Below, one piece after another: positions 2-60,353 of a stretch of DNA of 64,000 bases. Position numbers and translations under genes: made by a program. The DNA lies in contig JAEUWD010000063.1 of NCBI GenBank assembly GCA_016786485.1, positions 1 to 64,000 of the forward strand. Reading direction: 5' to 3'. The notes under the pieces are model-generated. The model had not been told where the DNA came from and did not search any database. It saw only the letters and a program-made list of their open reading frames with translations. Every line of letters begins with the position of its first letter. Position 1 is the stretch's first letter. This DNA is from Bacteriovoracaceae bacterium. Lineage in GTDB: Bacteria; Bdellovibrionota; Bacteriovoracia; Bacteriovoracales; Bacteriovoracaceae.

Positions 2-316
2 AGATGGGCCAGCAGCATTGATGACTATAAAAAGAATCTACGCTTTGAAGGCGAAGTGCTAAAAAAACGTTGCGCGAAGGTGATGTTTATTTCGACCACG
101 AGTTTTAGTCCTACTTATGAACATGCTTTTGATCATGAAGCAGTGGAACGTAATCAAGCGGCCAAGGAAGTTATGACTGAGTTAGGCATTAAATATTGCG
201 ATGTTTATGAGCTGAGTAAAAGTCTGGTGCGCCCTGATAATCTGCATTTTGACGAAGCATCATCGGTAAAACTAGCGCTACGAATTAAGCAATGTGAGCT
301 TCTTGAGTTCCAATAA
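2..316 (+). CDS. SGNH/GDSL-type hydrolase, C-terminal part (start lies before the window)
   Basis: The reading frame is open to the left edge, so this is the 3' part (about 104 codons) of a longer gene. The visible tail ends with an Asp-Asn-Leu-His stretch (PDNLHFD), which matches the C-terminal D-x-x-H block holding the catalytic Asp and His of SGNH esterases/lipases. It is preceded by a block (VMFISTTSF) resembling the central strand of that fold. The catalytic Ser block and any signal peptide would be upstream and cannot be seen. A GTG at 56 is a weak internal start candidate that I do not favour, because the frame continues through it with protein-like sequence. Family assignment rests mainly on the D-x-x-H block and is moderate. 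Confidence 0.55.
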   Translation, partial: RWASSIDDYKKNLRFEGEVLKKRCAKVMFISTTSFSPTYEHAFDHEAVERNQAAKEVMTELGIKYCDVYELSKSLVRPDNLHFDEASSVKLALRIKQCELLEFQ

Positions 317-331
317 AAAATTGCATATGAT
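303..331 (+). promoter_or_regulatory. sigma70-like promoter directly abutting the ATG of the exported glutathione peroxidase
   Basis: TTGAGT (303-308), a 17-base spacer and TATGAT (326-331) are followed by six bases and then ATG at 338. The expected transcription start falls on the A of the ATG, and there is no Shine-Dalgarno. Read as a leaderless-mRNA promoter. It also overlaps the end of the preceding gene. Confidence 0.5.
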
Positions 332-337
332 GTGCCC

Positions 338-991
338 ATGACTATCATAAAAAATCTTTCGCTTTTTATAATCATGACTTTTATTTCTCTAGCCGTTTTT
401 GCATCAACGACTCAATGTGAATCCTATGATGCTAACAGGAAGTGTATTATGACAAAAATTCAAACGATCTCTTTTACAAAGACCAATGGTGAACAAGGTT
501 CACTAAAAGAATTCGAAGGCAAGGTTCTCTTAGTGGTGAACGTAGCTTCGAAGTGTGGTTTAACTCCTCAATATGAAGGCCTTGAAAAAATTCAGCGCGA
601 ATATAGCAAAAAGGGTTTTACCGTTTTAGGTTTCCCAGCGAATAACTTTAAAGGTCAGGAACCAGGAACAAACGAAGAAATTCAGCAATTTTGTAAATTA
701 AAGTACGATGTCACTTTTCCAGTCTTTCAAAAAATTTCCGTAAAAGGTGCTGACACACATCCGTTGTATAAAGCTTTAATGGAAGCTCAACCAAAAGCCC
801 AAACAGAGAAAGGCAGTGGATTTGCGATGAAGCTTGCTTTAATCGGTGAGCGCCCTGATAGTGAATCAGGTATCCTTTGGAATTTTGAAAAATTTCTGAT
901 TGATAAAAAAGGTAATGTGGTGGCCCGTTTCGCACCAGACATGACTCCCGATTCAGAAACGGTTCGTAAAGAAATTGAAAAAAATCTATGA
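338..991 (+). CDS. Glutathione peroxidase-like thiol peroxidase with signal peptide
   Basis: Thioredoxin-fold peroxidase that would reduce hydroperoxides. Family blocks are clear: NVASKCGLTPQYEGL carries the peroxidatic Cys, FPANNFKGQEPG the Gln block, and WNFEKF the Trp/Asn block. The first about 22 residues (basic start, then FIIMTFISLAVFA) form a signal peptide, so the full product should be periplasmic. ATG 338 is chosen because a promoter places +1 on it; GTG 332 lies two codons upstream but has no ribosome site. Within the gene, AGGAAG (437-442) sits six bases before an in-frame ATG at 449, which would give a 180-residue cytoplasmic form of normal family length. A second, cytosolic paralogue lies at 33468-33953. 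Confidence 0.9.
   Translation: MTIIKNLSLFIIMTFISLAVFASTTQCESYDANRKCIMTKIQTISFTKTNGEQGSLKEFEGKVLLVVNVASKCGLTPQYEGLEKIQREYSKKGFTVLGFPANNFKGQEPGTNEEIQQFCKLKYDVTFPVFQKISVKGADTHPLYKALMEAQPKAQTEKGSGFAMKLALIGERPDSESGILWNFEKFLIDKKGNVVARFAPDMTPDSETVRKEIEKNL
437..451 (+). promoter_or_regulatory. Internal ribosome binding site and alternative start within the glutathione peroxidase gene
   Basis: AGGAAG at 437-442 is spaced six bases from the in-frame ATG at 449. The long form has no Shine-Dalgarno at all. Initiation here would remove the signal peptide and leave a complete peroxidase domain, so one gene could give exported and cytosolic enzymes. Confidence 0.45.
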
Positions 992-2762: not shown

Positions 2763-2791
2763 TTTATACCAAGCTCAGGATATTTAGGCAA
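2763..2791 (-). promoter_or_regulatory. Promoter abutting the ATG of the 431-aa lipoprotein
   Basis: On the minus strand TTGCCT (2791-2786), 17 bases, TATAAA (2768-2763), then five bases and the ATG at 2757. Predicted +1 coincides with the start codon and no Shine-Dalgarno is present. Confidence 0.5.
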
Positions 2792-6444: not shown

Positions 6445-7734
6445 ATGAAAAATTTATTAGTTACTCTAATTTTTCTTTCTTCACTGGCCCAAGCAGCGCC
6501 TGAGAAAGTGGTTGCAACGGTCAAGATGATGAGAGGTAAAGTTGTCAAAATACTTCCAAATGGCGTGAAAGAAACCATGAAGGCAACAGGTGAGACGGTA
6601 GTGGAGGGAACAGTTATTACAACTGAGAACGCCAGCTTTGCTCAACTACGCTTCATTGATAACTCTGTGGTTAACGTTGGTCCAAATTCAGAAATGAAGA
6701 TCGAGCAGTTCTCAAAAGATAAGCCAGGTTTATTATCAGTTGTAAAAGGTGAAATTCGTTCACAAGTTACTAAAGACTATTTAGAAATTTCAAAAGATGA
6801 ACGTGATAAATTGTATGTAAAATCTAAAACTGCGGCCATGGGTATTCGTGGTACAGATTTTATCTATTCATTTAACCCAAATAACGATGCAACCACTGCC
6901 GTACTAATGGAAGGGGAAGTTGCGTTTGCGAAGTTGGATAATCCTAATGCGGGATATGATGATGTCAAACGTGCGATTATCAATGACTCTGTTACGATGT
7001 ATCCAGGTGAGTTCTCTGTCGCAAAACCGGAAATGAAGCAGCCAACTATTCCAGCTGTTTTGAATATTAAGCAAAGAGACCTTTTAACTAAGAATCACAA
7101 TAACGGTAAGGAAGACAAAGGCCGTGCTCCTGCGAGTGCGGATAAAGAAAAAGTTGCTCATAAGAGTACAGTACCAGCTGGTCTAAATGGTCAGGTGGTT
7201 GCTAACGATAACAAAGCACTTGATAAGAGTGTTAAGGATTTAGCAGGTGATGTGGCAAACGTAAAAGTTCGTGATAATGCTGAAGGCTTTGTCAAAGATG
7301 GAATTATAAAACCAGCTAACGGTTCGATGGTTCACTTAGAAACAGGAGTTATTATTCCTCCTGCTGAAGGAAGTCAGTTTGATAAAAATACCAATTCTTA
7401 TATTTCTGATGCTGACGGAAAAGTCTTAAAAGACTCAGGTGATTATCGACCGATGGATGATAGTGTTAAAATTAATGAAAATGGAAAAATATTAGTGAGT
7501 GAAAATGGTCGGGTGATTGCAAAAGAACCACCTCACCCAATTCTAGGTGCCGCTGATAAGCACTTTGGTGGTTTAGTTCCTCCTCCAGTACCAGATGCCC
7601 TTGATCCGCGCTTTGTCCAAGGTGGCTTGAATCAACTTCGAGACAATATTGATACGAGTGCCTCCGGAACATATGTTCCATCAACACATGAGCAGAATAG
7701 TACACTAGTTAGATTCAATATTGATGTGCAGTAA
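6445..7734 (+). CDS. FecR-domain periplasmic protein
   Basis: A signal peptide (LLVTLIFLSSLAQAA) is followed by a FecR-like domain over about residues 25-160: the MMRGKVVKILPNG strand, GTVITTENASFAQLRFIDNSVVNVGPNSEM, and the AAMGIRGTDF block near residue 132. In this setting, without a sigma factor or FecA partner, FecR domains are thought to bind envelope components rather than act as anti-sigma factors. The C-terminal 260 residues are low-complexity, rich in Asp, Asn, Gly, Lys and Pro. AGAGAGAA precedes the ATG. It lies between an ASH-type lipoprotein and a TPR/beta-barrel protein, which suggests a joint envelope role. Confidence 0.88.
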   Translation: MKNLLVTLIFLSSLAQAAPEKVVATVKMMRGKVVKILPNGVKETMKATGETVVEGTVITTENASFAQLRFIDNSVVNVGPNSEMKIEQFSKDKPGLLSVVKGEIRSQVTKDYLEISKDERDKLYVKSKTAAMGIRGTDFIYSFNPNNDATTAVLMEGEVAFAKLDNPNAGYDDVKRAIINDSVTMYPGEFSVAKPEMKQPTIPAVLNIKQRDLLTKNHNNGKEDKGRAPASADKEKVAHKSTVPAGLNGQVVANDNKALDKSVKDLAGDVANVKVRDNAEGFVKDGIIKPANGSMVHLETGVIIPPAEGSQFDKNTNSYISDADGKVLKDSGDYRPMDDSVKINENGKILVSENGRVIAKEPPHPILGAADKHFGGLVPPPVPDALDPRFVQGGLNQLRDNIDTSASGTYVPSTHEQNSTLVRFNIDVQ

Positions 7735-7746
7735 ATAAGTTTCGCC

Positions 7747-7799
7747 TTACTCTGAACGTTAAAGTTCGTTATAATAGGGTCATATATGTATATGACCCT
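7747..7799 (+). promoter_or_regulatory. Promoter with a 24-bp palindrome over the start codon of the TPR/beta-barrel gene
   Basis: TATAAT at 7770-7775 with a poor -35 (TTACTC, 7747-7752, 17-base spacing) predicts a start near 7782, four bases before ATG 7786. Bases 7776-7799 form a near-perfect inverted repeat with 11-bp arms (AGGGTCATATA and TATATGACCCT) around a two-base centre; it covers +1 and the start codon. A repressor or autoregulator site fits best. Confidence 0.5.
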
Positions 7800-31789: not shown

Positions 31790-33103
31790 TTATTTAAGTG
31801 GATATTTTTTTTCAACTCTTTTAAAGACAGCTTCCGTTTGTGCCAAATAGATTTTTTGAATCTGTTTCTCATCCATGGCAGGTACGGCCTTAAGACCCAA
31901 GCCTTTTTCATTAGAGAGAGTCACGATGGCCTTGGTAAATTCTTTCGCCGACTTAGCTTCAAAAGCGGCTTTTTGGACAATTTCGTAAATGACTTCACGA
32001 TGGGCCGTCGTATTATCAATCAGGTAATGCAGATAAAAACTAGAAAGGTAACCAAAAGATTGCGTGACCTTGGCCTGAACTTTGTCTGTATGAACTTGTA
32101 GATTATTAACGGTCGAAGTTAAGCGCTTGAGTGAGTAATAAAGCAAATTTAAGTGATCGGGTAAGTACATTCTTTCAGTGCTTGAATGTGAAATATCACG
32201 TTCATGCCATAAAATAATATTTTCGTGAGCAATCAGAAGATGTGAACGCAACACTCGCGCCATCCCACATAGATTTTCCGCTGAGATAGGATTCTTCTTA
32301 TGGGGCATGGTGGATGAACCTTTCTGGCCCGAAGTAAATCCTTCGTGAAGTTCATCAATATCAGAGTGGTGAAGATGACGAATTTCCACCGCCATTCGTT
32401 CCATCGCACTTGCAATTAATGCATTGATTGAAATCAATTTAGCAATGCGATCACGCGGAATAACTTGGGTACTGACAGGTTCAACATTTAAATCAAGCTC
32501 ATCTAAAGCACTTTTCTCAATCGTTGGAGTGAGAATACAGTAATTTCCAACCGCGCCAGAAAGTTGGCCTGTCAGATCGTTCTCATAAAAAGCTTGAAGT
32601 TCAGCATAACGACGAGCGAACTCGGCATAGAATGAAAGAAATTTTTGACCAAAGCTCATAGGTTCGGCAAACATGCCGTGTGAACGACCAATTGAAATAA
32701 GTTTCTTATGTGTTTTCGCAAACTTTTTAAGACTCAAACAAAGTTTTTTAAGTTCCGGCAGAATAATTTTAATCGATTCTTTTAACTGCAAGGTAACCGC
32801 AGTATCGATAATATCAGAAGAGGTAACTCCGTAGTGAAAGTACTTGGCGACTTCGGCATCAAACTGCTCAGTGATACTCGTGCAGAAAGCAATAATATCG
32901 TGTTTCGTGGTTTTTTCGATTTCATCAATACGCGCAGGTTTGATAACCGCAGACTTTTCAATTCGTGCCGCAATTTTTTTTGGAACTTTTCCGGCCTTTT
33001 CGAGTGAACGTAAAAGTGCCAATTCCACTTTTAGAAAAGTTTTGTACTTGGCTTCTTCAGACCAAATTTGTTCAATCTCGGGACAGTTATAACGTGGAAT
33101 CAT
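31790..33103 (-). CDS. purB: Adenylosuccinate lyase
   Basis: Fumarase/aspartase-superfamily enzyme that splits SAICAR and adenylosuccinate in purine synthesis. GQKGSSTMPHKKNPISAENL is the family signature with the catalytic Ser loop; HDIIAFCTSITEQ and HYGVTSSDIIDTAV are the other substrate blocks. The 437-residue length fits the shorter PurB class. ATG 33103 has no Shine-Dalgarno, and a TTTACA/TAAGCT pair ends six bases before it, so translation may start at the 5' end of a leaderless mRNA. Confidence 0.95.
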   Translation of the reverse strand: MIPRYNCPEIEQIWSEEAKYKTFLKVELALLRSLEKAGKVPKKIAARIEKSAVIKPARIDEIEKTTKHDIIAFCTSITEQFDAEVAKYFHYGVTSSDIIDTAVTLQLKESIKIILPELKKLCLSLKKFAKTHKKLISIGRSHGMFAEPMSFGQKFLSFYAEFARRYAELQAFYENDLTGQLSGAVGNYCILTPTIEKSALDELDLNVEPVSTQVIPRDRIAKLISINALIASAMERMAVEIRHLHHSDIDELHEGFTSGQKGSSTMPHKKNPISAENLCGMARVLRSHLLIAHENIILWHERDISHSSTERMYLPDHLNLLYYSLKRLTSTVNNLQVHTDKVQAKVTQSFGYLSSFYLHYLIDNTTAHREVIYEIVQKAAFEAKSAKEFTKAIVTLSNEKGLGLKAVPAMDEKQIQKIYLAQTEAVFKRVEKKYPLK

Positions 33104-33109
33104 GCTGTC

Positions 33110-33138
33110 AGCTTAACAAATGAAACGGACGGTGTAAA
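33110..33138 (-). promoter_or_regulatory. Possible promoter abutting the purB ATG
   Basis: On the minus strand TTTACA (33138-33133), 17 bases, TAAGCT (33115-33110), six bases, ATG 33103. The -10 is weak (three of six), but spacing and lack of a ribosome site match the other leaderless candidates. Confidence 0.35.
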
Positions 33139-33467: not shown

Positions 33468-33953
33468 TTATTTTAGCATAAATTCGATTTCTTTTATAAT
33501 ATCCAGCGGCTTTGCCTGTGGAGCGTAGCGTTTGGTTGGTTTTCCGTTACTATCCACGATAAATTTAGTGAAATTCCACTTAATTTGTTTGCTTCCCAGC
33601 AGTCCCGGTAGTGAGTCCTTGAGAAATTGGTATAAAGGATGGGCGTTATCCCCATTTACCTCGATTTTTTCGAAAAGTGGGAAGGTGGCATTGAAGCGTA
33701 GGTTACAAAATTGAGCGATTTCCTCATTGGAACCCTTCTCTTGGTGACCAAACTGATTACAAGGGAAGGCCAGAATCTCGAGACCTTTCGGTCCGTATTC
33801 TTTATAAATTCGTTGAAGTTCTTCGTATTGAGGGGTGAAGCCACAAGCACTGGCGGTATTCACAATCATCAATGTTTTTCCTTTAAATTGCTCCAGGGAA
33901 ACCTCATTTCCCTTAATGTCTTTGGCCTTGAAATCGTAGACGGTTTTTTTCAT
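33468..33953 (-). CDS. Glutathione peroxidase-like thiol peroxidase (cytosolic)
   Basis: A 161-residue cytoplasmic paralogue of the exported enzyme at 338-991. It shows NTASACGFTPQYEEL with the peroxidatic Cys, FPCNQFGHQE with a second Cys that could act as resolving Cys, and KWNFTKF. Such bacterial enzymes often use thioredoxin rather than glutathione; that is family knowledge, not visible here. AGAGG precedes ATG. The 107-aa exported protein gene follows four bases after its stop. Divergent from kdsB, with a 13-base interrupted palindrome (33974-33986) between. Confidence 0.92.
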   Translation of the reverse strand: MKKTVYDFKAKDIKGNEVSLEQFKGKTLMIVNTASACGFTPQYEELQRIYKEYGPKGLEILAFPCNQFGHQEKGSNEEIAQFCNLRFNATFPLFEKIEVNGDNAHPLYQFLKDSLPGLLGSKQIKWNFTKFIVDSNGKPTKRYAPQAKPLDIIKEIEFMLK

Positions 33954-44377: not shown

Positions 44378-45175
44378 ATGGCCAAAAGATTACCTCATAA
44401 AATTATATGCCTGACTGAGGAGTCAGTCGAGACACTTTACCTCTTGGGAATGCAGGACAAAATTAGTGGGGTTTCTATCTATGTGGAAAGACCTGAAGCG
44501 GCTAAACTAAAACCCAAAGTCACCAGTTTCGTGAAGGCCAAATATTCCGAGATTCTGGCACTGAAACCGGATCTTATTTTAGGCTATTCCGATATCCAAA
44601 AAGATATCGCTAAAGACTTAATCGAAAAAGGTTTGAATGTTTTTATCGCCAATCATAGGACAGTCGATGGTATTTTGAATTACGTTTATACTTTGGCCAA
44701 TTTGGTGGGAAATGCGTCAGCAGGAGAAGAGTTGATTCAAATCCTAGAACAAAAAATAAATGTTATCGCTAAAAAATCAGCGCAACTTAAACGTCATCCT
44801 CGGGTTTATTTTGAAGAGTGGGATGGGCCGATGATCAGTGCTATCGAATGGGTGAGTGAGCTGATTGAAATGGCGGGTGGAGTAAATATTTTTAAAGATC
44901 GCGCACAAGGTGTTTTGGCCAAAGAAAGATTTACTACCCATGAAGAAGTCATTCAGGCCAATCCAGATATTATTTTTGCTTGCTGGTGTGGAAAAAAAGT
45001 TAATCTTTCCAGTATTTCCAAGCGCGATGGATATGAGGTCATTTCCGCCGTGAAAAATCAGCAAATTTTTGAGCTTGACCCAAGTATTTTCTTACAACCG
45101 GGACCCGCACCACTTTTAGAGGGGTTAGATATTCTTTATCATTATTTTTTTAAATGGGCTGAAACCGACTATTGA
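44378..45175 (+). CDS. BtuF/FepB-like helical-backbone binding protein without signal peptide
   Basis: The 265-residue protein matches class III substrate-binding proteins for cobalamin or siderophores: IICLTEESVETLYLLGMQDKISGVS, AKYSEILALKPDLILGYSDI, VYFEEWDGPMISAIEWVSELIEMAGG and QANPDIIFACWCGKK. Unlike BtuF it starts straight into the first strand (MAKRLPHKII) with no signal peptide, so it appears cytoplasmic. No btuC, btuD or TonB-receptor gene is nearby. The start has no Shine-Dalgarno and lies 18 bases from dsbD. Either a cytosolic corrinoid-binding protein or a misannotated start; upstream sequence offers no leader. Confidence 0.75.
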   Translation: MAKRLPHKIICLTEESVETLYLLGMQDKISGVSIYVERPEAAKLKPKVTSFVKAKYSEILALKPDLILGYSDIQKDIAKDLIEKGLNVFIANHRTVDGILNYVYTLANLVGNASAGEELIQILEQKINVIAKKSAQLKRHPRVYFEEWDGPMISAIEWVSELIEMAGGVNIFKDRAQGVLAKERFTTHEEVIQANPDIIFACWCGKKVNLSSISKRDGYEVISAVKNQQIFELDPSIFLQPGPAPLLEGLDILYHYFFKWAETDY

Positions 45176-45199
45176 CACGTATAAGATCATACTTATATT
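45172..45199 (+). promoter_or_regulatory. Near-consensus promoter placing +1 on the ATG of the Hsp20-like gene
   Basis: TTGACA (45172-45177), 16 bases, TATATT (45194-45199); ATG is at 45206, seven bases on. An inverted repeat TATAAG-N6-CTTATA (45180-45197) overlaps spacer and -10 and could be an operator. No Shine-Dalgarno is present. Confidence 0.6.
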
Positions 45200-45205
45200 T
45201 AAATT

Positions 45206-45742
45206 ATGAAGTTTATAACATTATTTATTATTATTTCATCGCTTGCGCACGCAGATACGTTCGAAGAACGCATGCAATTTATGCAGGAAGAGATGGAGCG
45301 TTTTCTACAAGAGCAAGAAGATAACTTTGCACGTTTTCATAACGATCCTTTTTTCAAGGATATGGGCTGGAACGTGAACGGTAATCAATTGCAAACCAGC
45401 ATTGAGCGAACAGCAGATGAAGTAAAAGTTATTATTCCTTTAAAAAACAAGGGCGATGAATACAAAATCATTGTCCGCAATAACATGATTACTGTGCAAG
45501 GCCAAACGGTGATTGAGAAGAAAAATGAATCAGAACAAGGAACTTCTTATTCAAAATCAGTCTCACACGTCAGCCAGGTGTTTCCTGTTCCGGAAGACGC
45601 AGGCCCGGAACCTAAGGACATTAAAAAGTACGATGATCGTTATGAAGTCATTTTTCCTAAGCAAAAAACTCAGTTAAAAAAAGAAACACCTTCAGAGCGT
45701 AGACCCTTATTAAAAGGGTTTGAAAGTGATAAGACGATTTAG
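45206..45742 (+). CDS. Exported Hsp20/alpha-crystallin-like protein
   Basis: Signal peptide (FITLFIIISSLAHA), a Met/Glu/Gln-rich helical segment (residues about 20-50), and an alpha-crystallin-like beta-sandwich (residues about 65-155: LQTSIERTADEVKVIIPLKN, NNMITVQGQTVIEKKNESEQ, VSQVFPVPEDAG, YEVIFPK). Small heat-shock proteins are normally cytosolic; the leader here predicts a periplasmic holdase. The IxI-type tail is not evident. The start has no ribosome site, and a strong promoter sets +1 on the ATG, so the mRNA is likely leaderless. Confidence 0.75.
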   Translation: MKFITLFIIISSLAHADTFEERMQFMQEEMERFLQEQEDNFARFHNDPFFKDMGWNVNGNQLQTSIERTADEVKVIIPLKNKGDEYKIIVRNNMITVQGQTVIEKKNESEQGTSYSKSVSHVSQVFPVPEDAGPEPKDIKKYDDRYEVIFPKQKTQLKKETPSERRPLLKGFESDKTI

Positions 45743-50642: not shown

Positions 50643-50668
50643 GGCCAGTCTTAGGACTGGTCTTTTTT
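50643..50668 (+). terminator. Rho-independent terminator after the metalloprotease gene
   Basis: GGCCAGTC-TTAG-GACTGGTC forms eight pairs (one G-T) with a four-base loop, followed by six T. It ends inside the stop region of the convergent 1095-aa gene. Confidence 0.85.
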
Positions 50669-53600
50669 ATTCTAAATATTTATTGCACTGAACATTAGTT
50701 GAAATTAAGGATGTTTTGCCACTATTTAATAAAAAATTATATATTTTTTGTTGAGTAATTTCTGAACGAGGAGTTTCAGGCTGTATATTATAGAGTAACG
50801 CCAAAGCAGAGTACTGCTGAAAATGGATGAGCTCATCAATCATTTTGTTGGTTATTAATTCAGAATGTTTTTTATGCGTAAACGCATCCAGCAAAAGGTT
50901 TGTGTACATTTTTGAAATAATATTTTTATGCATGTTATGTTTGTATGAAGCAGCTAGAATATTTATAAGGCTTTGTATGTCCTCATCTAAAGTAAAGTAA
51001 CCTTCATTACGACTAATATTGAGTATATCTTGAAAAAGTTCAGTAGTTTTAGCGTAATTATCTTTGTCGCCTGTTTTTATTAGAGTTATCAAGTTTTCAA
51101 ATGATTCTAGTTCCGGTGTAAACTTTTTTAACTTATGTAGATATATTCTAGCATGAAAAGATGACTTATAAATCTCGTATATAAATTCATCGGTTTTTTT
51201 GTCTTTTAGGATTTTCTGGAAATAACTATTAAATATTTCACGTTCATTTTTACTTACAGTTTTATTAAAGCGTGCTTGAAAGTAGCCTGTAATAGTAGCT
51301 TTGATTAGCTCAGAATTATCGAGTTTTATGATTTTATCAAGTAAGGTTTTTAGGATTTCACCATTTTCAGCGTCAAACCAATTGTATCCCCAAGCAAAAT
51401 AATCAAAATAAGCTACATCTTTTTCAGATTTGATGAGTTGGTTGAGCATTTTTTTTAATAGCGAAATATTTTCTTTGTTTGGCCGAGCATTGATTAGAAA
51501 AGTACGGTATGTCATTCTGCGTTCGTTTTTATATCCCTCTCGCTTTAAATCTGCATACTTAGTAAACATTAACTCCGCCTGTATTGCGATTTGTGTCGGG
51601 TCATAGGCAAAATGAAGATTTTTTATATTGCCCTTACTAAGCTTATGCTCAAATAAATTATGAAAAAGTGTTGTTTGTTTCTTAAAATAAGCTTTGGTTA
51701 AGAATGTATCGTAAAGTTTTTTTTCCAAGTGCTCAACTGGAGCCTCGGTCGTAGTGACATAACTTATAATCGTTTCTAATACTTTCGTGAGGTCAGGTAA
51801 AGTATTATATTTTAAAAGTTGATTGAGAATTGTTATTTGAAATTGCTCAGGATTAGCATTTTTTTCTATACTTCGTTTTATCGCTTCGATTAAATAATTT
51901 TGAAAAGTGGGTGTATTTCTATAGTTAAAAAGTGGGATGATATATTCAGTGAAGTCACCACCCTCAAGTAAATCAATTTTTTTGAAAATAGCACTCATAA
52001 TATCTGGGTCTATTTCTTCCTTGATTGAGACAAGTCCCATAAATTTAAGAAAATGAAGTAATGATTGTCTTTTTGCAGTTTTTAGAAAAATTAAAGCATA
52101 AGTTTTAAATTCAATAGCATCAGCTATTTTAGATACAAAGCTATTTTTTTGCCTGTGCCACATGTTATAATTCGCTATTTCTGCTGATGTCATTCCGTCA
52201 AAATTGGGTTCTTCATCATTCATATCTATTTCAAGTGTAGATGATTTTAAATATGTAAATAAATCCTTAATAGTAGTAGCTTTGTTTTGCTCTGAAAAAT
52301 TATCTGGTGAGAAGATAATGGCCGGATAAAAAAGATCGATCTTTTTTAAATAATAACTTCGATTATAATTTATTCCTTCTTTCGCAAAAAATTCTTTCAT
52401 CTCTCGATGATATTCATCTACATTAAGGCAAGTGTCATTCGGAAGAACATTTTTGACGAACTGATAATAAAGGTCATTTTCTAAAATCCGACTACCAAAT
52501 GATTTATAAATACGAATTTTTGCAAGAGCATCAAGTGGTCTTGCGGGGATTTTTTCAAACATCTCTGTCTGGAGTGCTATTTCTAGTAAGTGAGGGGTTA
52601 ATACGATGTAAGCTTTTTTATTATTAGCCATCGAATCGTAAATACTTGGTGTGATTTTTTCAAAAAGACTGCGAAGCTCAGGGTTAGTATGTTTAACGGA
52701 GATGGCATTCTCACGATCAAGCATGGATTTTAGAGCGGAAGTGATCGTAGAATAGTTGATGTTACTGGCAAGATTTGTTTCCGACGGAAGGAGGAGTTTT
52801 GCTTCTGCCTGTTGCTCCTTCACCCATTTTTCGATACCTGAAGCAATTAAATAAGTCTGAGCTGTCGTTAGTGTAGTTCCATTCACGGTGTGAAGATAAA
52901 AATGCTTTTGCCCCTCACTCTCGAGCCAAGTTCCAGTCGCATGCCCTAAAGGTTCAGGTATTTCATTAAGATTTTTAAAATGTGGATAGATATAAAAAGT
53001 CATTTCGTTGGGGTCATAAGCAAAAGAGAATGAATTGCTAGTTGAGCAGTCCTTTCCGACACAACCACGAAGAGCAGCTAGACGTGCTGGCACGTGCAAT
53101 AAACTGAGATGAGAATTTTCGTGGTCGATGGTCATGGTCGTCGTTTCATAAAAAGCCTGCATTTGTTTCAGCAGTTTTTTTCGAGCGTAGGCTAAGGTTT
53201 TTTCGGATAATTCTAGTGATTTGGTGTGCTTCTTATAAATATGTAGATCGCGAATGGTGTCTAGGTCTTCTTCAATCAAGGCCCTGTTATGAGGTGTTCT
53301 CTCTGCATGTATGGCCTCTGTTCTAATCGTACCGATTAAGCGAATTTCGTATGAAGCTTGGATTTGCAATTGTTTGATGAAATCGTCTTTATTTATTTGA
53401 GGCGGAAGTGAATAGAGTTCAAAGTTAAAGCCTGTTTCTTGAAAGTTAACTAAAGCTGGCAAAAAATAGTTTAATTGACTTATTCTTTCGTTGATATCAG
53501 CTTCTAAAATTTGTTTTTGTTTATCATTCGGAATAAAAGTTAAGATAAGGCCAGTGGTAAGGCCTTCAATAATAAATTCTTTCGTTTTTATATCAGAAAA

Positions 53601-53954
53601 CTGGGTATTCCAAGCATCATGCAGTCGTTGCATAATGAGGACTTTTTGTTCGATTGTTTTTTTCTCATGAGTACCTGTCGTTCGAATGTCGATTTTATCA
53701 AATGCAATTCCTGGAGCAATTTCCATAAAATTTCGTTTATCAGAAAACTCAGTTGTTAATTGCTCCTCAAGTTGAAACATTTTTTGTAGTTTTAAAAAAA
53801 TATCACCGCCATAGCGTTCTGTACTGTTAAGTCCTTGTGGTACTAGTGTCAGATAGGTATTTAAGAATTCAAGCTCAGGCTGATGGGTATTTTGAGCAGA
53901 CGAAGCAAAGCTTAGTAGACCGAGAGTTAGGGTGAAAAGCAATCGAATGACCAT
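50667..53954 (-). CDS. Very large exported protein of unknown function, 1095 aa
   Basis: Signal peptide (LLFTLTLGLLSFASSAQ), helical N-terminal third, then a distinct central block around residues 290-390 (LRGCVGKDCSTSNSFSFAY, MTFYIYPHFKNL, FYLHTVNGTTLTTAQ) and a long helical, repeat-like C-terminal half that looks solenoid-like. The Cys pair GC-x4-C of the central block is the only striking motif. Asn/Lys/Ile-rich composition makes it more AT-rich than its neighbours. No family recognised. A promoter abuts the ATG (53961-53989) and there is no Shine-Dalgarno. Confidence 0.75.
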   Translation of the reverse strand: MVIRLLFTLTLGLLSFASSAQNTHQPELEFLNTYLTLVPQGLNSTERYGGDIFLKLQKMFQLEEQLTTEFSDKRNFMEIAPGIAFDKIDIRTTGTHEKKTIEQKVLIMQRLHDAWNTQFSDIKTKEFIIEGLTTGLILTFIPNDKQKQILEADINERISQLNYFLPALVNFQETGFNFELYSLPPQINKDDFIKQLQIQASYEIRLIGTIRTEAIHAERTPHNRALIEEDLDTIRDLHIYKKHTKSLELSEKTLAYARKKLLKQMQAFYETTTMTIDHENSHLSLLHVPARLAALRGCVGKDCSTSNSFSFAYDPNEMTFYIYPHFKNLNEIPEPLGHATGTWLESEGQKHFYLHTVNGTTLTTAQTYLIASGIEKWVKEQQAEAKLLLPSETNLASNINYSTITSALKSMLDRENAISVKHTNPELRSLFEKITPSIYDSMANNKKAYIVLTPHLLEIALQTEMFEKIPARPLDALAKIRIYKSFGSRILENDLYYQFVKNVLPNDTCLNVDEYHREMKEFFAKEGINYNRSYYLKKIDLFYPAIIFSPDNFSEQNKATTIKDLFTYLKSSTLEIDMNDEEPNFDGMTSAEIANYNMWHRQKNSFVSKIADAIEFKTYALIFLKTAKRQSLLHFLKFMGLVSIKEEIDPDIMSAIFKKIDLLEGGDFTEYIIPLFNYRNTPTFQNYLIEAIKRSIEKNANPEQFQITILNQLLKYNTLPDLTKVLETIISYVTTTEAPVEHLEKKLYDTFLTKAYFKKQTTLFHNLFEHKLSKGNIKNLHFAYDPTQIAIQAELMFTKYADLKREGYKNERRMTYRTFLINARPNKENISLLKKMLNQLIKSEKDVAYFDYFAWGYNWFDAENGEILKTLLDKIIKLDNSELIKATITGYFQARFNKTVSKNEREIFNSYFQKILKDKKTDEFIYEIYKSSFHARIYLHKLKKFTPELESFENLITLIKTGDKDNYAKTTELFQDILNISRNEGYFTLDEDIQSLINILAASYKHNMHKNIISKMYTNLLLDAFTHKKHSELITNKMIDELIHFQQYSALALLYNIQPETPRSEITQQKIYNFLLNSGKTSLISTNVQCNKYLE

Positions 53955-53960
53955 TCGCGA

Positions 53961-53989
53961 AATTTAGTTTTTTTGACAGCAAGAGTCAA
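53961..53989 (-). promoter_or_regulatory. Promoter abutting the ATG of the 1095-aa exported protein
   Basis: On the minus strand TTGACT (53989-53984), 17 bases, TAAATT (53966-53961), six bases, ATG 53954. Predicted +1 falls on the start codon. On the plus strand the same stretch carries TTGACA (53973-53978) towards the divergent gene, and TTGAC/GTCAA arms form a palindrome. Confidence 0.5.
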
Positions 53990-59745: not shown

Positions 59746-59774
59746 TTGACGGCCATTCGGGGTGGCCCTAAGAT
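59746..59774 (+). promoter_or_regulatory. Promoter abutting the ATG of the acyltransferase gene
   Basis: TTGACG (59746-59751), 17 bases, TAAGAT (59769-59774), then AGGGTC and ATG 59781. The 10-mer ATAGGGTCAT spanning the -10 end and ATG also occurs at the same place in the promoter at 7774-7783. Confidence 0.5.
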
Positions 59775-59780
59775 AGGGTC

Positions 59781-60353
59781 ATGCTTTGGTTGTTAAAAAA
59801 GTCGCTGCATTTGTTCTTCTGGTTGCGAGGCTGGAAATTCGTTGAAAATTCCATTAAGGATGTGGACAAGGCCGTGGTCATAGTTGCTGGTCACACCAGT
59901 AATTGGGACTTTTTAAATGGTGTAGCTTGTTTAGATATTATGAATAAACCGGCCCGTTTCACCATAAAAAAAGAATGGATGTTTTTCCCGTTTAATCTTT
60001 TCTTTGGGACGCTTGGAGCTTTCCCAATTGATCGTTCAAAGAAAACTAGCGCGGTTGAGCAGATGGTGAGTTACGTCAACTCACGGTCTCAAGTGATTTT
60101 AGTTGTGACGCCGGAAGGAACTCGTAGTCGTCAGGATAAATGGAAAACCGGTTTTTATCATGTCGCCGCTGCCGCGAAAATTCCAATTGGTTTAGGTTAT
60201 ATTGATTACGCCACCAAAACTTGTGGTGTTTCACAATTGATTTATCCTTCAGGTGATTACCAAAAAGATCTCACCAATATTTGCCGTTTTTATCAAAAAG
60301 TTCATCCGAAAAATCCTGAAAAATTCGCACTCGATAGTAGTGTTAAATTATAA
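59781..60353 (+). CDS. PlsC-type 1-acylglycerol-phosphate acyltransferase-like protein
   Basis: A 190-residue acyltransferase. The catalytic HxxxxD box is GHTSNWDF (about residue 38), the second block is FPIDRSKK and the third VTPEGTRSRQDKWKTGFYHVA with the Glu-Gly-Thr-Arg motif that binds glycerol phosphate. The protein is short and lacks a clear membrane helix beyond the N-terminal LLKKSLHLFFWLRG amphipathic segment. It could be a PlsC paralogue for a non-standard lipid. A promoter sets +1 on the ATG with no Shine-Dalgarno. Confidence 0.85.
   Translation: MLWLLKKSLHLFFWLRGWKFVENSIKDVDKAVVIVAGHTSNWDFLNGVACLDIMNKPARFTIKKEWMFFPFNLFFGTLGAFPIDRSKKTSAVEQMVSYVNSRSQVILVVTPEGTRSRQDKWKTGFYHVAAAAKIPIGLGYIDYATKTCGVSQLIYPSGDYQKDLTNICRFYQKVHPKNPEKFALDSSVKL

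What the first reader, a model, noticed from the sequence alone, without database searches (positions are those of the whole stretch)
45172..45208. A recurring leaderless-mRNA promoter layout across the window
At 45172 a TTGACA-N16-TATATT promoter ends seven bases before an ATG with no Shine-Dalgarno. The same -35/-10/ATG geometry (spacing 16-17, gap 5-7) occurs at 303-338, 2791-2755, 53989-53952, 59746-59783, more weakly at 33138-33101 (purB), and with a four-base leader at 7770-7788. Products include exported GPx, a lipoprotein, an Hsp20-like protein, a 1095-aa exported protein and an acyltransferase. If confirmed, this lineage makes heavy use of leaderless mRNAs.
Basis: partly seen in the sequence, partly recalled or inferred. 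Interest (0 to 1): 0.65.

Follow-up and report, generated by a model that had tools for sequence, protein, structure and literature searches.

The report
Leaderless-mRNA promoters in a Bdellovibrio relative
In this relative of the bacterial predator Bdellovibrio, a minority of genes (roughly 5-10% of those with their own promoter) appear to start transcription exactly on the first letter of the coding sequence, so the ribosome must begin without the usual binding site; the trick is known from other bacteria but had not, in the papers I could search, been shown for this lineage.

Summary
The layout is real and the leaderless reading is well supported, but "heavy use" is too strong. All seven sites exist. 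Five have the gap from -10 box to ATG of exactly 6, which puts +1 on the A of ATG (45206, 338, 53954-, 59781, purB 33103-). The other two have gaps 5 and 10 and are weak. Window: 5 genes with the full geometry versus 0.29 in dinucleotide shuffles. In 1.06 Mb of the same genome, three family members and one same-phylum genome, TANNNT peaks only at gap 6 before ATG: 91 of 1014 promoter-proximal genes versus about 26 at neighbouring gaps, absent in E. coli. ATG and GTG show the peak, TTG does not, matching mycobacterial leaderless rules. Selected only on TANNNT, the sites also show TTG at -35, T at -17 and G at -14. The focal promoter is footprinted: four distant orthologues keep TTGACA/TTGATG-N16/17-TANNNT-N6-ATG, while many others use Shine-Dalgarno. 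Host: Bacteriovoracaceae. Leaderless genes of this kind are known, including in delta-Proteobacteria (PMC3160421). Share here is about 5-10% of promoter-proximal genes. RNA 5' ends remain unmapped.

The parts
45172..45177 (+). -35 element TTGACA of the focal promoter; overlaps the TGA stop (45173-45175) of the upstream gene 44378-45175
   Evidence: conserved in L262, L258, L252 as TTGACA, in L259 as TTGATG
45194..45199 (+). -10 element TATATT, exactly 6 nt before ATG
   Evidence: TANNNT at the same distance in L262, L258, L252, L259
45206..45742 (+). gene with predicted leaderless mRNA: exported Hsp20/alpha-crystallin-like protein (178 aa), start ATG = predicted +1
   Evidence: weak Pfam HSP20 in the window copy (E=0.0086, below cut-off); orthologue L258 passes the PF00011 cut-off
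303..308 (+). -35 TTGAGT
326..331 (+). -10 TATGAT, 6 nt before ATG 338
338..991 (+). exported glutathione peroxidase; predicted leaderless start ATG 338 (not GTG 332)
   Evidence: PF00255; geometry
53984..53989 (-). -35 TTGACT
53961..53966 (-). -10 TAAATT, 6 nt before ATG 53954
50667..53954 (-). 1095-aa exported protein, predicted leaderless
   Evidence: a 35%-identical paralogue in the same genome, otherwise nearly absent from the family
59746..59751 (+). -35 TTGACG
59769..59774 (+). -10 TAAGAT, 6 nt before ATG 59781
59781..60353 (+). acyltransferase (PF01553), predicted leaderless
33133..33138 (-). -35 TTTACA of purB
33110..33115 (-). -10 TAAGCT, 6 nt before the purB ATG 33103; no SD here although 18 of 22 orthologues have an SD-like sequence
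31790..33103 (-). purB, possible leaderless start
2763..2768 (-). TATAAA, gap 5 before ATG 2757 (putative lipoprotein); not of the enriched class
7770..7775 (+). TATAAT, gap 10 before ATG 7786 (4-nt leader claimed); no -35, overlaps an inverted repeat

Best explanation
These are ordinary sigma70-family promoters placed so that transcription starts on the A (or G) of the start codon. The -10 hexamer occupies -12 to -7 relative to the start codon and the -35, when present, lies 16-18 nt further up. RNA polymerase starts 7 nt after the -10 box, so the mRNA begins 5'-AUG with no leader and no Shine-Dalgarno site. Translation would begin by direct binding of a ribosome (probably a 70S) with initiator tRNA to the 5'-terminal AUG/GUG. 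Shown here: the geometry, its enrichment at exactly one distance, its -35 and extended -10 signature, the ATG/GTG-only pattern, and footprint conservation at the focal gene. Inferred: the RNA 5' end and the 70S route. The class is a minority, roughly 5-10% of promoter-proximal genes, and is present across the Bdellovibrionota genomes sampled. Individual genes switch between leaderless and SD-led starts over genus-level time.
For: Sharp peak at gap 6 in five genomes: G000 44/649 versus a background mean of 19.7 (P=1.6e-6), and G002, G010, G012, G017 each P<=0.0017. Dinucleotide shuffles: z 3.4-5.8 in every Bdellovibrionota set, -0.4 in E. coli. Pooled 91 versus 26.2, Poisson P about 5e-23; GTG 14 versus 4.3; TTG 5 versus 5.3. 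Leave-one-genome-out matrix scan peaks at gap 6 in all five genomes and gives 0 in E. coli. Another 18 Bacteriovoracaceae purB loci: 13 at gap 6 versus about 2 at other gaps (partly orthologous loci). Not used in the selection: T at -35 and -34, more G at -33 and C at -31, T at -17, G at -14; -35 >=4/6 at spacer 16-18 in 12/29 and 21/62 versus 13-14% at other spacers, P about 5e-4 and 4e-4. Focal gene: L262, L258, L252, L259 keep -35/-10/6-nt/ATG. In L244, L262 and L258 the upstream gene is the same, yet the promoter keeps its distance to the ATG and not to the upstream stop (stop 1, 1 and 11 nt from the TTGACA start). Anti-SD intact and 16S present, so SD-led starts coexist.
Against: No 5' ends are mapped. 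Leaderless state is rarely shared by orthologues between genera: 3 pairs have a gap-6 site on both sides, 47 on one side only, many of the latter chance matches. SD depletion at gap-6 sites is not independent evidence, because the -10 box occupies the SD region (neighbouring gaps look SD-poor too). About 26 of the 91 gap-6 matches are expected by chance, so no single gene without a good -35 or a footprint is secure. Start codons were called mechanically.
Confidence: 0.88

Rival explanations
1. The motifs are chance: in a 38% GC genome TA-rich hexamers near ATGs are common and the reader picked the best looking ones.
For: About 26 of 91 pooled gap-6 hexamers are expected by chance; the window is richer than the rest of the genome in strong -35 versions, a sign of selection of this extract.
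Against: Peak at one exact distance in five genomes, z 3.4-5.8 against dinucleotide shuffles, absent in E. coli; -35 signature not used in selection; footprint in distant orthologues.
Confidence: 0.03
2. The AT-rich box 7-12 nt before the ATG is a translation signal (S1-binding or low-structure element, as in Bacteroidetes) and not a promoter.
For: Such AT-rich non-SD signals exist in other phyla and can mimic a -10 box (PMC5397173).
Against: A translation signal would not bring TTG at -35, T at -17 and G at -14, would not need a gap fixed to the base, and would not keep TTGACA at 16-17 nt in L262, L258 and L252. The class is at or below background in operon-internal genes of G002 and G010 (0/94 and 2/85).
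Confidence: 0.05
3. The promoters are real but the true start codon lies further downstream in a leadered mRNA (mis-called starts).
For: Start choice was mechanical; several genes have further in-frame ATGs nearby.
Against: At 45206 and 53954 the encoded signal peptide begins at the called ATG (MKFITLFIIISSLAHA, MVIRLLFTLTLGLLSFASSA), as in the Hsp20-like orthologues. A promoter unrelated to the start codon would not sit at one exact distance from ATG and GTG but not TTG.
Confidence: 0.04

Closest known systems
TA-led (TANNNT) leaderless genes of bacteria, Zheng et al. 2011 (PMC3160421)
   Same: TANNNT about 12 bp before the start codon, read as the -10 box of a leaderless promoter; that survey found them in 8 of 33 delta-Proteobacteria genomes (mean 15.8%)
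   Different: Its main text does not name Bdellovibrio; here the share is lower, the lineage is Bdellovibrionota, and the class is tested with shuffles, a held-out matrix and a footprint
-10-motif adjacent to ORFs in Deinococcus-Thermus (PMC12340547)
   Same: -10 box next to the ORF giving leaderless mRNA; -35 optional but enhancing
   Different: About 30% of ORFs there, proven by reporters; here a minority and only predicted
Mycobacterial leaderless transcripts (PMC4633059)
   Same: ATG or GTG at +1 works, TTG does not; the same start-codon bias is seen here
   Different: Nearly one quarter of transcripts there, mapped by RNA-seq and ribosome profiling
Bdellovibrio bacteriovorus attack-phase promoter map (PMC3627812)
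   Same: Same phylum, TSS mapping exists
   Different: 140 attack-phase promoters, two thirds FliA-type; the passages found there do not discuss leaderless mRNAs

Membership tests
Leaderless (TA-led) bacterial genes | -10 hexamer at a distance that puts +1 on the first base of the start codon | tested here: met
   Gap 6 exactly, enriched in five genomes
Leaderless (TA-led) bacterial genes | No Shine-Dalgarno before the start codon | tested here: inconclusive
   True of the window sites, but the -10 box occupies that region, so it is not independent
Leaderless (TA-led) bacterial genes | Start codon AUG or GUG, not UUG | tested here: met
   ATG 91 vs 26, GTG 14 vs 4, TTG 5 vs 5
Leaderless (TA-led) bacterial genes | Primary RNA 5' end at the start codon | not testable with these tools
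   No RNA data
sigma70-type promoter | -35 TTGACA-like element 16-18 nt upstream of the -10 | tested here: met
   Enriched at that spacer and visible as T, T at -35, -34 and T at -17, G at -14; only a minority of sites have a good -35
Lineage with dominant leaderless expression (Deinococcus-like) | About 20% or more of genes leaderless | tested here: not met
   Excess 4-9% of promoter-proximal ATG genes, about 11% with relaxed motif

The most novel reading that the evidence does not exclude
Leaderless transcription is an ancestral, phylum-wide second mode of gene start in Bdellovibrionota, with genes switching back and forth between SD-led and leaderless starts, perhaps serving the predatory life cycle (for example translation that persists in attack-phase or stressed cells).
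Probability: 0.25. Interest if true: 0.6.

Novelty: new member of a known kind. Interest (0 to 1): 0.42.

Why it matters
If confirmed by RNA mapping, gene finders that rely on Shine-Dalgarno sites will misplace starts for something like a hundred genes per genome in this phylum. Expression tools for predatory bacteria could use leader-free promoters. The lineage would also add a Gram-negative, low-GC case outside the classical Actinobacteria and Deinococcus examples, where SD-led and leaderless starts of the same orthologue can be compared directly, as at the Hsp20-like gene.

Tried and rejected
SD depletion as evidence: rejected, because the -10 box itself occupies the SD region. Export enrichment: tested, not found. 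Reciprocal best hits between five genome samples: few overlapping genes and rapid turnover; only 3 of 50 informative pairs have a gap-6 site on both sides. The repeat at 7776-7797 was sought in all fetched loci and not found elsewhere. My first view that purB is merely operon-internal was softened: its TTTACA-17-TAAGCT-6 geometry and lack of SD fit a switch. Pelagibacter loci were looked at as a second control but are redundant orthologues with spikes at several other gaps, so not used.

Full report
The observation. All seven sites are in the sequence. Five have the -10 hexamer exactly 6 nt before the ATG and a -35-like hexamer 16 or 17 nt further up: 45206 TTGACA-16-TATATT, 338 TTGAGT-17-TATGAT, 53954(-) TTGACT-17-TAAATT, 59781 TTGACG-17-TAAGAT, and purB 33103(-) TTTACA-17-TAAGCT. 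The lipoprotein site has TATAAA with gap 5, and 7786 has TATAAT with gap 10 and no -35. Against dinucleotide shuffles of the same upstream regions, the full geometry at gap 6 occurs before 5 of 56 window genes versus a mean of 0.29 and a maximum of 2 in 200 shuffles; with -35 at least 5/6 it is 4 versus 0.04. In the rest of the sampled genome the same test gives 12 versus 3.8, and 1 versus 0.4 at the stricter level, so this window is an unusually favourable extract.

The host. PurB places the genome in Bacteriovoracaceae of the Bdellovibrionota: the nearest named hits, at 56-63%, are nearly all Bacteriovoracaceae or Bacteriovoracia, including Halobacteriovorax marinus. The genome has 2.98 Mb in 67 contigs. 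The 16S 3' end with an intact anti-Shine-Dalgarno is present, and 43% of ATG-start genes have an SD core in the last 20 nt, so SD-led starts are the main mode.

The class is genome-wide and lineage-wide. I sampled 1.06 Mb of this genome in stretches, plus 0.4 Mb each of three other family members and one same-phylum genome, called genes mechanically, and counted TANNNT by its distance to the first ATG. There is one clear peak, at gap 6: G000 44/649 (background 19.7, P=1.6e-6); among promoter-proximal genes G002 20/150 (6.3), G010 14/170 (4.9), G012 15/160 (5.8), G017 13/148 (4.2). Shuffles give z from 3.4 to 5.8 in each of these sets and about zero in E. coli K-12 treated the same way. Pooled over promoter-proximal genes: 91 of 1014 at gap 6 versus 26 at neighbouring gaps. 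A matrix learned without the tested genome peaks at gap 6 in all five and gives 0 in E. coli. Eighteen further Bacteriovoracaceae-type loci show 13 at gap 6 versus about 2 elsewhere.

These boxes are promoters. The 91 sites were chosen only by TANNNT. They also show T, T at -35 and -34, more G at -33 and C at -31, T at -17, G at -14 and A at -9 and -8, which is a sigma70 logo with a 17-nt spacer and an extended -10. -35 hexamers with at least 4/6 matches are about three times commoner at spacers 16-18 than elsewhere. With the -10 at -12 to -7, transcription is expected to start on the first base of the start codon (established knowledge of sigma70 promoters). The peak is seen before ATG and GTG but not TTG, which is what leaderless translation in mycobacteria demands (PMC4633059).

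The focal gene. 45206 encodes an exported Hsp20-like protein; the window copy is below the Pfam cut-off, but the orthologue in L258 passes it. Twenty-three of 59 family genomes have a match. L262, L258 and L252 carry TTGACA, and L259 TTGATG, at spacer 16 or 17, then TANNNT, then exactly 6 nt, then ATG; protein identity is only about 22-38%, so neutral upstream DNA should have lost all resemblance. L264 is similar but with TTAAAT and spacer 18. Others (for example L247, L248, L251, L253, L260) have a clear SD instead. Five loci share the upstream Peripla_BP_2 gene (L244, L262, L258, L248, L257). The first three are leaderless-type, the last two SD-type. In L258 the upstream stop lies 10 nt later relative to TTGACA than in L244 and L262, yet the distance to the ATG is kept.

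How much. The strict excess is 4-5% of ATG-start genes and 4-9% of promoter-proximal ones; allowing one wrong base in the -10 adds perhaps 4-5%. Extrapolated, that is of the order of 75-130 genes in this genome. This is well below Deinococcus (about 30%, PMC12340547) or mycobacteria (about a quarter, PMC4633059), so "heavy use" is not supported. Exported products are not over-represented (36% versus 32%, P=0.48). Between genera the leaderless state of a given gene is seldom shared, and purB looks like a switch: 18 of 22 orthologues have an SD-like sequence, this one has none and has the promoter geometry.

Known or new. Zheng et al. 2011 (PMC3160421) defined this TANNNT class about 12 bp before starts, took it as leaderless, and found it in 8 of 33 delta-Proteobacteria genomes, the class in which Bdellovibrio was then placed (the placement is my own knowledge). 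I found no paper in the held library that reports leaderless mRNAs for Bdellovibrio, Bacteriovorax or Halobacteriovorax; the B. bacteriovorus TSS study (PMC3627812) does not discuss them in the passages found. So this is a new lineage for a known kind of system.

What is inferred. The RNA 5' ends, and the direct binding of ribosomes to the 5'-terminal AUG, are inferences from geometry and from other bacteria. No RNA data were available. Roughly a quarter of the gap-6 matches must be chance, so individual genes without a good -35 or a footprint are not secure.

Noticed in passing
window 7776-7797: Inverted repeat GGGTCATATA-TG-TATATGACCC straddling the ATG of gene 7786, followed by TTTTAATTTT; it may be the terminator of gene 6445-7734 or an operator over the start. 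Not found in any other fetched locus.
   Followed up: partly
window 50667-53954 (-): 1095-aa exported protein without Pfam match; a 35%-identical paralogue at G000 contig 20 and only weak matches in one other family genome.
   Followed up: partly
window 45172-45177 and 44378-45175: The -35 TTGACA overlaps the TGA stop of the upstream Peripla_BP_2 gene; the same overlap occurs in L262, whereas in L258 the TTGACA lies inside the upstream gene's last codons.
   Followed up: yes
window 338-991 (+) and 33468-33953 (-): Two glutathione peroxidase genes in one window, one with a signal peptide and one without.
   Followed up: no
L196:17344-17769 (-) and L236:18319-18741 (-): Orthologous small genes (54% identity) share a TTGACTCCGTA...TATATTATG promoter with a symmetrical spacer that looks MerR-like and runs straight into the start codon.
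   Followed up: no
window 52327-52348: Perfect 22-bp palindrome TAAAAAAGATCGATCTTTTTTA inside the 1095-aa coding sequence.
   Followed up: no
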